A stretch of DNA of 64,000 bases from Syntrophorhabdus sp. PtaB.Bin047 (GTDB lineage Bacteria; Desulfobacterota; Syntrophorhabdia; Syntrophorhabdales; Syntrophorhabdaceae), in assembly GCA_002067235.1 (NCBI GenBank), contig MVQP01000004.1:1-64000 (forward strand), read 5' to 3'. The position numbers and the translations under genes are program-made. Shown here piece after piece: positions 56,403 through 59,526 of the stretch (position 1 is the first letter of the stretch; every line of letters starts with the position of its first letter). Below the pieces are notes generated by a model. It worked only from the letters and a program-made list of their open reading frames with translations, did no database searches and had not been told where the DNA came from.

Positions 56403-56590
56403 AAACTACAAGGTGCTGACCGGGATGGACAGGTTTCGCTCGGTCAAAGCCTGTCAATATCGTCCATTATGCATTCCAAATGCAATATAGCCGATGATTC
56501 GCCATATGGCAATACATGACCCATTCAGCTGTGTGCCCCGCTGCAAAGCTGAAACCCCTTCTATGGGGGAGTCATGCGGCAGGTTGCGGG

Positions 56591-56883
56591 GCGCGTGATC
56601 CTGGCTCCCCCGGGCAGCCACGCTTAAGGATCACACCTGCGAGAGACGGTTGCAGGTTGCTGGTCTCAAGTTTCAGGTCAAAAGCAAAAAGACGGTGCGG
56701 ACAGAGGTGGGTGCGGGTTGCAGACTGGTCGTCCGCATACATAGCTTTGCCGCGTATCGCCAACATGGTGCAGCCAGACGCATCGGTTCCGGTCACTCTG
56801 TACCCGGTCCGCGCTCCCCGAAAGCTTGAGCGGGTCCCGTGATCCTATGCTAACGGCTGCCCGGGGGAGCCAGGACCACGCGC
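56591..56883. mobile_element. Possible non-coding element with 44-45 bp inverted ends (MITE-like)
   Basis: The left end 56591-56634 (GCGCGTGATCCTGGCTCCCC, then CGGGCAGCCACGCTTAAGGATCAC) is nearly the reverse complement of the right end 56839-56883 (GTGATCCTATGCTAACGGCT, then GCCCGGGGGAGCCAGGACCACGCGC). Few mismatches separate them. Each end is itself partly palindromic (GTGATCC at both sides). The 204-base interior has no gene and includes a TTTCAGG-type array. No target-site duplication was found. Alternatively it is a large structured RNA or operator. Confidence 0.4.
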
Positions 56884-56984
56884 GAGGGGGGAAGTGAGGG
56901 TCAAAAACCAAGCGAAGGAACGGAGCGAAGCTCGCCTGCAAAAGGTATTTGCTTTTGAAGGAACGTTCCCTGCCTGCACATGAT

Positions 56985-57830
56985 TCAAGCCATTGCCAGC
57001 CCGACCACTTCCTGACATGGTATCGTGATACGGTCATCCTCCGAACGAAAGTGCTCTGCGGCCCTTATGACGGTCAGCCTTATGTTGGAAGCGACTTCGT
57101 CTGGTATATTCTTGAGAAGCATTTGGAGTCGGCCACTTATCCCTACCACCATATCCCAGTATTCCTCCGAGCTTTTCACCTCAAGCGAAAAGTTGTGGCG
57201 CGTGGTTCGAATGCTACGGAAGCCGGCATCGGATAGCGCTTTTTCGAGTACCCCTTCCAATCCGAAATCGAACCACATGGGCGCGCCGGGCACAACAGCA
57301 GCAGGCCATAGCTCGCGAATGGTTCTTGCGACGATCCCGATCACAATGGCGCGATCAGGTGTGCTCCAAACGGAGAGTGCGAGGGTGCCAGACATCCTTT
57401 TAAGAACACGCCTCATCTCTTGCAGGGCCTTCATCCGGTCGGTCATATGCACCAGTCCGTGACTGCAGAGAACCACATCAAACGAATCATCCGGAAACGG
57501 TAACGCTTCCGCATCGCCTTCTCGAAAGACAACATTACTAATCCCCTTTTCTTCAGCCTTTTTCTTTGCAATATCTAACATCCCCGGAGCAAGGTCGATC
57601 CCCGTCACTACCCCGCCTGGGGCAACAAGGGATGCCGCCGTGAGCGAAGGAATTCCAGGTCCACAGGCAACATCGAGGATATGCTGTCCGGGGAGAAGAC
57701 TTGCAGCGTCAAGAAGGGGCTGCGCCAGGTCTTCGAATACTTTGCACCCGTATTCATCATACCCGGACGCGGTCATGCTGTAAACCTGCCGTTCAATTAC
57801 TTTGTACTCAACCGGATCAAACGATGTCAT
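56985..57830 (-). CDS. SAM-dependent methyltransferase, class I
   Basis: A 281-residue protein of the Methyltransf_11/UbiE-like group. The SAM motif I is ILDVACGPGIPSLTAAS, motif II GVVTGIDLAPGMLDIAK, and further motifs are REGDAEALPFPDDSFDVVLCSHGL and LQEMRRVLKRMSGTLALSVW. The acceptor is unknown. ATG 57830 has an AAAGGAGG site eight bases upstream, so it is preferred over the in-frame start at 57881. It follows the PAS-LuxR gene by 80 bases on the same strand. Confidence 0.87.
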   Translation of the reverse strand: MTSFDPVEYKVIERQVYSMTASGYDEYGCKVFEDLAQPLLDAASLLPGQHILDVACGPGIPSLTAASLVAPGGVVTGIDLAPGMLDIAKKKAEEKGISNVVFREGDAEALPFPDDSFDVVLCSHGLVHMTDRMKALQEMRRVLKRMSGTLALSVWSTPDRAIVIGIVARTIRELWPAAVVPGAPMWFDFGLEGVLEKALSDAGFRSIRTTRHNFSLEVKSSEEYWDMVVGISGRLQMLLKNIPDEVASNIRLTVIRAAEHFRSEDDRITIPCQEVVGLAMA

Positions 57831-57881
57831 CCGTCCGCCTCCTTTCTTACAATGATACGGGGAGAGTGCCGGGCGTGACAA

Positions 57882-57910: not shown

Positions 57911-58669
57911 TTACCTGAGGTTGTGGGAAGCCGCCCAGACCGCCGCCTGGGTGCGGTCTTTAACAGCGAGCTTGAAAAAGATATTTCTGACGTGTGTCTT
58001 AACTGTATCGGGACTGATGCAGAGGATATCGGCGATCTCCCTGTTGGAAAACCCTCTTGTGATGAGCCTGAGCACCTCCTGCTCCCGAAGGGTGAGAGCG
58101 ATATCCCGACCTTCTGCGACCGGTTTTACGTGGTCGATGTTTTCGGTTTTGTTCAATTCTCTCAGTGTTTCTTCAAGGGATTCGATGTATTTCTTGCGTT
58201 TTTTCTCGTCTCTTTTCTTGTCTGTGATCTGTATGATGATCTCGAAAATGTGTTTGACGGAGCCATCCTCATCAAATATGGGGTATGCCTTCACTTCTGC
58301 GTACCGACGTTCCTTGTTGGGCAAATCAAGCCATCTTTCCATGATACAGGGTTCTTTGGTATCGGAAACGATCTTCAAGAGACATACGGGGCATGGCGCT
58401 TCTCTCCTGCGCCAAACCTTATAGCAGGGTTTTCCAATCATCTCGCTTAACGGTTTCTCAACCGCAGCCGCCATGACCTTGTTGGACCAGAGGACCGTAT
58501 AGTCCTTGTCGAGTATATTGACGGCAATATCCGGAGCGCTCTCGAAGACCGCCTTAAAGAGATTCAACGAAGTGTCAAAAGAGAGTTTTGTCTGTGCCAT
58601 AGGATGTCTATGTTCCGAAGAAACAGGACAACCTTCCAAGAGTTGTTTCCCTTTAATGCTTCTTTCCAT
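57911..58669 (-). CDS. PAS-domain LuxR-family transcription regulator
   Basis: A 252-residue regulator. Residues about 40-150 form a PAS domain (LFKAVFESAPDIAVNILDKDYTVLWSNKVM, KPCYKVWRRREAPCPVCLL, VKAYPIFDEDGSVKHIFEI quoted in parts), with a CPVC pair that could sense metal or redox state. A coiled-coil linker follows, then the GerE-type helix-turn-helix LTLREQEVLRLITRGFSNREIADILCISPDTVKTHVRNIF. There is no receiver domain. ATG 58669 has AAAAAGGAAGG upstream; 58600 is an alternative. It may control the downstream methyltransferase. Confidence 0.85.
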   Translation of the reverse strand: MERSIKGKQLLEGCPVSSEHRHPMAQTKLSFDTSLNLFKAVFESAPDIAVNILDKDYTVLWSNKVMAAAVEKPLSEMIGKPCYKVWRRREAPCPVCLLKIVSDTKEPCIMERWLDLPNKERRYAEVKAYPIFDEDGSVKHIFEIIIQITDKKRDEKKRKKYIESLEETLRELNKTENIDHVKPVAEGRDIALTLREQEVLRLITRGFSNREIADILCISPDTVKTHVRNIFFKLAVKDRTQAAVWAASHNLR

Positions 58670-58955
58670 TTTCCTTCCTTTTTCCATTTTCTGCAACAGC
58701 TAATCTATCGATTGCGGACTGTGATCCAAGACGCCTTGGACGTCATTGATCCCATTGACTACGAGAAGTGGTTGTCGAGCTGTAGACGATCATAGGCTTC
58801 ATCTCGATCGAGTCCATAAAGACCACGGCTCTATTGCCGCTACTCCCCAGTGAAACAACCCCGGTCAGTGCGTTGGCCGCATGATTCTTCCTTGGCCCAC
58901 GGAGCACGGGAATGAGACCCCGCGCTGACCCACGCACCGGACCCATCATTGAGCG

Positions 58956-59498
58956 CTAGACCCCAGCCGGAAGCTTCGACGCCATCAGCATTCTTCGGTC
59001 CAGTTTGCGGCCATCCACGATGAATGTGCCGTCGCCGACGGCGTGGACGGTTCGTTTCTCTTTGCGCGACGTGTCGAAGTATGCGGCGAGGGCTTCGAGG
59101 ATGACGATGTTGTGTCTTTTGATGATGTCGATGACCCTGCATTCGATGTTGGCGAGGCATTCCTGTATTAAGGGCGCTTTGACCATCTTGCCTTTTACGG
59201 GGGTGAGCTTGAACTTGGTGAATTTGTCCGTATCGGAGCCGGAGCATGTTCCTATTCCGACGACCTTATCGAGCATGTCGACGGTGGGGACCGCGACAAC
59301 ACACTCCTTCGTTGTCCGGAGGGCCCTGAAAGAATAGTTCCATTCCCCGGTCGTCATGGCAAAGACCGGTGTGAAGTCCATGACCATTGTCCATGAGATC
59401 GTCATGATGTTGTCCTTCTTTCCATCATTCGTCGTAACAAGGACAACCGGGCCCGGTTCCAGCAGCATAAAGGCTCTACTAATCTCCAATTGCTCCAC
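58956..59498 (-). CDS. Flavin reductase-like FMN-binding protein
   Basis: A 180-residue split-barrel flavoprotein. Segments GPVVLVTTNDGKKDNIMTISWTMVMDFTP, WNYSFRALRTTKECVVAVPTVDM and IECRVIDIIKRHNIVILEAL are characteristic (each in part). The family includes flavin reductases and flavoredoxin-like electron carriers common in sulfate reducers. The frame continues to 59648, but the promoter at 59527-59554 and the normal family length place the start at GTG 59498. It is likely monocistronic. Confidence 0.87.
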   Translation of the reverse strand: MEQLEISRAFMLLEPGPVVLVTTNDGKKDNIMTISWTMVMDFTPVFAMTTGEWNYSFRALRTTKECVVAVPTVDMLDKVVGIGTCSGSDTDKFTKFKLTPVKGKMVKAPLIQECLANIECRVIDIIKRHNIVILEALAAYFDTSRKEKRTVHAVGDGTFIVDGRKLDRRMLMASKLPAGV

Positions 59499-59526
59499 GA
59501 GAACACCCCCCCCTGTTTTTATGAAC

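What the first reader, a model, noticed from the sequence alone, without database searches (positions are those of the whole stretch)
56591..56883. Element with 44-45 bp nearly perfect inverted ends in a gene-free gap
Two long inverted ends with internal GTGATCC palindromes bracket 204 non-coding bases that include one TTTCAGG-type array. Size and ends resemble a MITE, and its interior links it to the short-unit repeat family. No transposase or target duplication is visible.
Basis: partly seen in the sequence, partly recalled or inferred. Interest (0 to 1): 0.55.

Follow-up and report, generated by a model that had tools for sequence, protein, structure and literature searches.

The report
Dispersed hairpin repeat bordering defence islands
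A roughly 290-base hairpin-forming DNA repeat, found so far only in one genus of anaerobic bacteria, is scattered at the edges of gene islands that differ between species and often carry anti-virus genes; it behaves like a small non-coding mobile repeat, but its middle is conserved while its ends vary, the reverse of what such elements normally show.

Summary
The inverted ends at 56591-56883 are real: 29-nt arms with one mismatch, then a 7/8-nt loop and 8 more pairs. This is one copy of a dispersed family: 37 copies in 8 of 46 genomes of the order, all in one genus of 19, named hits being Syntrophorhabdus-type MAGs. The interior is conserved (90-92% in its best blocks) while the outer arms are only 67-70% alike between copies, yet pair within each copy. 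Copies cluster (11 neighbour pairs within 10 kb, 0.6 expected) and flank variable islands with CRISPR-Cas, TIR, NACHT, restriction and toxin genes. One 313-bp copy occurs at unrelated sites in two species. MITE-like behaviour is supported; MITE membership is not: no target duplication was detected and the ends are the least conserved part. Arm changes show almost no G.U intermediates and no strand preference, suggesting DNA-level arm-to-arm copying. What moves the element and what the conserved interior does remain unknown; only deletion scars, no clean empty site, were found.

The parts
56591..56619 (+). 5' outer arm of the inverted repeat (29 nt)
   Evidence: the repeat finder I1, 97% complementary to 56855-56883
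56855..56883 (+). 3' outer arm of the inverted repeat (29 nt)
56627..56634 (+). AGGATCAC, 5' strand of the second helix, after a 7-nt internal loop
   Evidence: sequence; arms printed
56839..56846 (+). GTGATCCT, 3' strand of the second helix
   Evidence: sequence; arms printed
56638..56695 (+). TTTCAGG-type short-unit stretch that replaces the usual inner hairpin in this copy
   Evidence: compare rows of the alignment; matches at 11 other places in the genome
56696..56866 (+). core of the element family
   Evidence: covariance-model match, 174.8 bits
56773..56854 (+). most conserved 3' half of the interior
   Evidence: mean pairwise identity about 0.90; invariant columns
56489..56590 (+). upstream piece shared with G001:C134 and G002:C202; in G001 it starts right where homology to the element-free G010 locus ends
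56985..57881 (-). methyltransferase gene on the 3' side; a homologue lies on the 3' side of a copy in G005 with different 5' flank
   Evidence: Pfam Methyltransf_25; 1,597-bp flank match
57911..58696 (-). PAS-LuxR type regulator in the same variable interval
   Evidence: Pfam GerE and PAS_4
58901..58925 (.). scar of a second, inverted copy that G001 and G002 still have beside flavin reductase; one arm remains
58949..59507 (-). flavin reductase gene region, conserved right-hand border of the variable interval
   Evidence: 87% match to L034; Pfam Flavin_Reduct in four orthologues

Best explanation
A genus-restricted family of non-coding, dispersed palindromic elements of about 260-310 bp that behaves like a MITE or BIME. 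Shown here: multi-copy, lineage-restricted, present at unrelated sites, conserved interior, arms that pair within each copy although their sequences differ between copies. Inferred: it moves non-autonomously with help from an unidentified enzyme; its arms stay complementary because hairpin-templated DNA replication or repair copies one arm onto the other; and pairs of copies flanking accessory genes supply homology through which the genes between them are swapped or deleted by ordinary recombination. The window copy lies at the left edge of one such variable interval; the right-hand copy there has been lost to deletion.
For: 37 copies in 8 of 46 genomes, one genus of 19. L052 and L119: 313 aligned bases at 90.7% with unrelated flanks. 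G005/G006: a 95% identical copy in opposite orientation beside the same gene. Flank junctions swap at the element: L042 and L053 share the 5' flank only, L053 and the window share the 3' flank only. Deletion scars at several loci. Arms pair within copies at -46.0 against -28.7 kcal/mol for swapped arms; 101 double-change cells against 29 in shuffles; outer stem 506 Watson-Crick cells, 8 G.T, 10 A.C, which fits arm homogenisation by template switching as described in general (abstracts PMC8604942, PMC8794818). Interiors exchanged for other palindromes while the frame is kept, as in mosaic repeats.
Against: No target duplication in 30 copies. No mover identified; Y1_Tnp absent in G001, which has 9 copies, and present in G004, which has none. 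The ends, which a transposase should need, are the variable part, while the interior is conserved: that is unusual for a MITE. No clean empty site. Several swapped junctions could be ordinary homologous recombination between repeats without any transposition. The tree of copies is mostly weakly supported (5 of 26 inner branches starred).
Confidence: 0.58

Rival explanations
1. A multi-copy structured non-coding RNA, perhaps linked to the neighbouring defence genes, whose outer stem must pair but may have any sequence; the conserved interior is the functional part.
For: Conserved interior with variable but pairing outer arms. Inner helices have 23 minority G.T cells against 9 A.C cells, a weak lean towards a + strand RNA.
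Against: No Rfam family at gathering score in the window and no match on the copies in three loci even at E<=5 above a family's gathering score. Outer-stem changes have almost no G.U intermediates and no strand preference. The same frame is found with a wholly different interior. No constant promoter position was seen, though none was tested formally. No expression data.
Confidence: 0.22
2. A dedicated recombination border of defence islands: pairs of inverted copies are the sites at which accessory modules are loaded, swapped and dropped.
For: Type I-E cas genes and a CRISPR array lie between two inverted copies in L039; TIR plus AAA ATPase in L038; HerA-type helicase and DNA methylase genes in L034. 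Neighbour orientation within 13 kb: 6 '+-', 1 '-+', 5 same-strand. PADLOC hits at E<=1e-10: 13 of 40 genes beside copies against 0 of 36 element-free control genes (p 9e-5).
Against: No recombinase identified with the family; integrase families were not searched. Orientation bias not significant (p 0.06). 3' side 9 of 20 against 5' side 4 of 20 is not significant (p 0.18). At L046 the conserved chromosomal side is the 3' side, opposite to most. Losses are irregular scars, not precise excisions. Repeats of many kinds accumulate in islands.
Confidence: 0.15

Closest known systems
Bacterial MITEs (review PMC10969869; passages seen)
   Same: Small (50-500 bp in the review), inverted ends, no transposase gene, multi-copy, dispersed
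   Different: No target duplication found; ends variable and interior conserved; no cognate transposon found
REP/BIME elements with RAYT transposases (PMC2817692; passages seen)
   Same: Intergenic palindromes in mosaic combinations; palindrome kept through complementary changes
   Different: About 290 bp instead of 20-40 bp units; Y1_Tnp presence does not follow copy number
ERIC sequences of enterobacteria (recalled, not from a call)
   Same: Single large imperfect palindrome, intergenic, conserved centre
   Different: About twice as long, other taxon, no sequence relation tested
Integron attC sites (recalled, not from a call)
   Same: Hairpin-forming DNA site between accessory genes
   Different: Conserved interior and variable ends, mixed orientations; integrase not searched

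Membership tests
MITE | Small, non-coding, with terminal inverted repeats | tested here: met
   ORFs over it are mechanical only
MITE | Multiple dispersed copies | tested here: met
   unrelated sites
MITE | Target-site duplication | tested here: not met
   30 copies: longest shared flank word 4.83 against 4.87 for swapped flanks; exact ends are uncertain
MITE | Ends match those of an autonomous transposon | not tested
   only Y1_Tnp was sought; no other transposase family
MITE | Clean empty sites | tested here: inconclusive
   only scars and one-sided comparisons
REP/BIME with RAYT | Copy number follows a cognate RAYT (Y1_Tnp) gene | tested here: not met
   G001 9 copies and 0 Y1_Tnp; G004 0 copies and 6 Y1_Tnp matches
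Known structured RNA | Match to an Rfam family at gathering score | tested here: not met
   window; three other loci, E<=5
Integron attC | Same-orientation arrays | tested here: not met
   neighbours within 13 kb: 4 ++, 6 +-, 1 --, 1 -+
Integron attC | Linked IntI integrase | not tested

The most novel reading that the evidence does not exclude
The element is a dedicated exchange border: a hairpin DNA site with a conserved core whose inverted pairs let a bacterial genus load, swap and drop defence modules at fixed chromosomal sites without an integron integrase.
Probability: 0.15. Interest if true: 0.8.

Novelty: new variant of a known kind. Interest (0 to 1): 0.5.

Why it matters
If it is only a MITE/BIME-like repeat, it is a family that I found described nowhere in the searches listed, with a reversed conservation pattern, and its copies give a natural test of how the arms of a palindrome evolve together. 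If copies take part in island exchange, they would give a short, sequence-defined border for defence-island turnover, so that the question of how defence modules move between chromosomal sites could be tested by looking for breakpoints inside one repeat.

Tried and rejected
Known RNA families: no match at the thresholds used. Y1/RAYT transposase as mover: no correlation. Viral contigs: the exact core 20-mer gave 0 stretches. Wider taxa: 0 of 27 other family genomes by BLAST and 0 of 34 genomes outside the genus by covariance model (which used stricter filters). Target duplications: none. Clean empty sites: sought at the window and flavin reductase loci and at five further loci; only scars, one inverted placement and one one-sided comparison came out. 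Grouping of copies by orthologous locus: not seen, support mostly weak. A 3'-side excess of defence genes over the 5' side: 9 of 20 against 4 of 20, not significant. Those 40 genes were my choice of nearest longer ORFs, not all of the 68 and 76 listed; gene calls are mechanical and some ORFs are probably spurious; a generic methyltransferase hit (mad2, the window gene) is among the 9 and a generic DEAD-helicase hit and a short HTH hit are among the 4. The 36 control genes come from one genome only.

Papers: six searches found no description of this repeat in the held open-access library, in which most subscription journals are missing. I saw passages of PMC10969869 and PMC2817692, and abstract plus outline of PMC8794818 and PMC8604942.

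Full report
Observation. The finding's coordinates are right. Arms 56591-56619 and 56855-56883 are 29 nt and 97% complementary. Inwards follow a 7/8-nt internal loop and an 8-bp helix. The region folds far better than shuffled sequence on both strands (z -4.9 and -6.0; 0 of 100 shuffles each). GC is 0.625 against 0.579 for the window.

A family, not a single element. In its own draft genome (269 contigs, 3.64 Mb) one other copy of the core is found, at C176, 78% identical. In the genus 9 of 12 genomes match; the ninth, G011, only through 27 bases of the short-unit repeat. In the family 8 of 39 genomes match, all in the same genus. A covariance model built from 26 copies gives 37 matches in 8 of 46 genomes of the order, 1 of 19 genera. 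An exact 20-mer of the core gives 17 stretches in GTDB r220 genomes, all in MAGs titled Syntrophorhabdus sp., Syntrophobacterales bacterium or Deltaproteobacteria bacterium, and none in viral contigs. I infer the genus Syntrophorhabdus from one of those titles.

Anatomy. The usual copy has an outer stem of about 17-24 bp with several sequence classes, then CAGCCACGC and GGATCACACC, a small inner hairpin, a variable middle, a highly conserved 3' half and the closing arm. Mean pairwise identity is 0.67 and 0.70 in the outer arms, 0.92 and 0.90 in the conserved interior blocks and 0.59 in the most variable block. The window copy belongs to a small set (window, L038, L041 and a truncated copy at L037:6121) in which the inner hairpin is replaced by the TTTCAGG-type stretch. 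In other copies the interior is exchanged for a palindrome of short-unit repeats while the outer frame is kept (L043:1680-1970, L114). Short derivatives that look like deletions between CCACGCTNCG words exist (L045:4080-4240, L040:10560-10720).

Pairing. On the RNAalifold structure 19 of 53 pairs have changes on both sides, with 101 such cells against 29 in shuffles, 0 of 500 as high; sliding the partner by one base drops paired cells from 96% to 40-49%. Within copies the arms pair at -46.0 kcal/mol on average, against -28.7 for swapped arms; the own partner is best in 16 of 24 (2 of 26 rows were dropped for short arms). Outer-stem cells are 506 Watson-Crick, 8 G.T, 10 A.C and 13 other; inner helices have 23 minority G.T against 9 A.C. 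The outer stem thus changes almost without G.U steps and without strand preference, which I read as DNA-level copying between arms. That mechanism is described for inverted repeats in general (PMC8604942 and PMC8794818, abstracts). The inner helices lean weakly towards a + strand RNA, so the RNA reading is not excluded.

Movement. L052 (G009) and L119 (G001) share 313 aligned bases at 90.7% and nothing else at E<=1e-5 in the two fetched loci, so a discrete unit occurs at unrelated sites. In G005 and G006 a 95% identical copy lies near the same end of a shared gene in opposite orientation, the G006 copy lacking its 3' arm. Flank comparison of 32 copies shows swapped junctions: L042 and L053 share 1.8 kb of 5' flank but not the 3' flank; L053 and the window share 1.6 kb of 3' flank but not the 5' flank. 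In a tree of 29 cores, copies do not group by orthologous locus and some neighbours group together, but only 5 of 26 inner branches are well supported. No target duplication was detectable in 30 copies. At the helicase locus, homology between G001 and the element-free G010 ends just where homology to the window's upstream piece (56489 on) begins; this shows one border only.

The window's own locus. In several species the interval before a flavin reductase gene carries copies and different cargo: a TIR protein and an AAA ATPase in G002, an amidohydrolase in G001, restriction-like and HerA-type genes in G009, and in G000 a methyltransferase and a PAS-LuxR regulator; G007 has almost nothing there. 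G002 and G001 carry an inverted copy next to flavin reductase; the window retains one arm there (58901-58925), a deletion scar. G007 shows a deletion consistent with the 17-nt direct repeat inside the element. G003:C65 is a scar containing pieces of the G007:C72 island.

Islands. Type I-E cas3 and a CRISPR array lie between two inverted copies in L039, and a Cas3c-type gene lies beside a copy in L041 next to the same AbiEi gene. PADLOC hits at E<=1e-10: 9 of 20 genes on the 3' side, 4 of 20 on the 5' side, 0 of 36 control genes from the element-free part of the window; 13 of 40 against 0 of 36 gives p 9e-5, 3' against 5' gives p 0.18. The 40 are my choice of nearest longer ORFs, and the controls are from one genome. 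Among mechanical ORFs within 2.5 kb, the 5'-side set holds flavin reductase (4), peroxidase (3), RF3, sigma-70 and MreB, but also AbiEi; the 3'-side set holds Cas3, HEAT and HicB proteins. At L046 the conserved side is the 3' side, so this is a tendency, not a rule. Copies cluster: 11 neighbour pairs within 10 kb against a random mean of 0.59, 0 of 20000 simulations as high. Neighbour orientation is 6 '+-', 1 '-+' and 5 same-strand.

Verdict. It works like a MITE or BIME: small, non-coding, palindromic, dispersed, mosaic. I do not file it as a MITE, because target duplications were tested and not found and the ends are the variable part; nor as a RAYT-driven REP, because Y1_Tnp does not follow copy number. 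What moves it and what the conserved interior does are open. Contigs are draft MAGs and many end near copies, so counts are lower bounds.

Noticed in passing
window 56638-56695; L043:1680-1970; L114:4270-4620; L125:6400-6600: A short-unit repeat family (TTTCAGG / GGTTCAAGAGTTC type) forms palindromes of its own and replaces the interior of some copies; 11 other places in the window's genome match it.
   Followed up: partly
L039:3395-15995 and L041:1-9130: The same AbiEi gene borders a copy in two species, with type I-E cas genes beyond it in one and a Cas3c-type cas locus in the other.
   Followed up: partly
L035, L038, L040, L043, L045, L048, about 50-250 bp on the 3' side of copies: A second conserved motif (GATCAAGTCATCTTAATTCATC type) recurs there and also occurs in G008, which has no copy of the element.
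   Followed up: no
window about 56965-56990 and flanks of other copies: A GGAACGTTCCC / GGATGTCCC type word recurs near copies on either side; it may be another small repeat.
   Followed up: no
L040:5920-7590: Two copies 1.46 kb apart with similar flanks suggest a local duplication of element plus surroundings.
   Followed up: no
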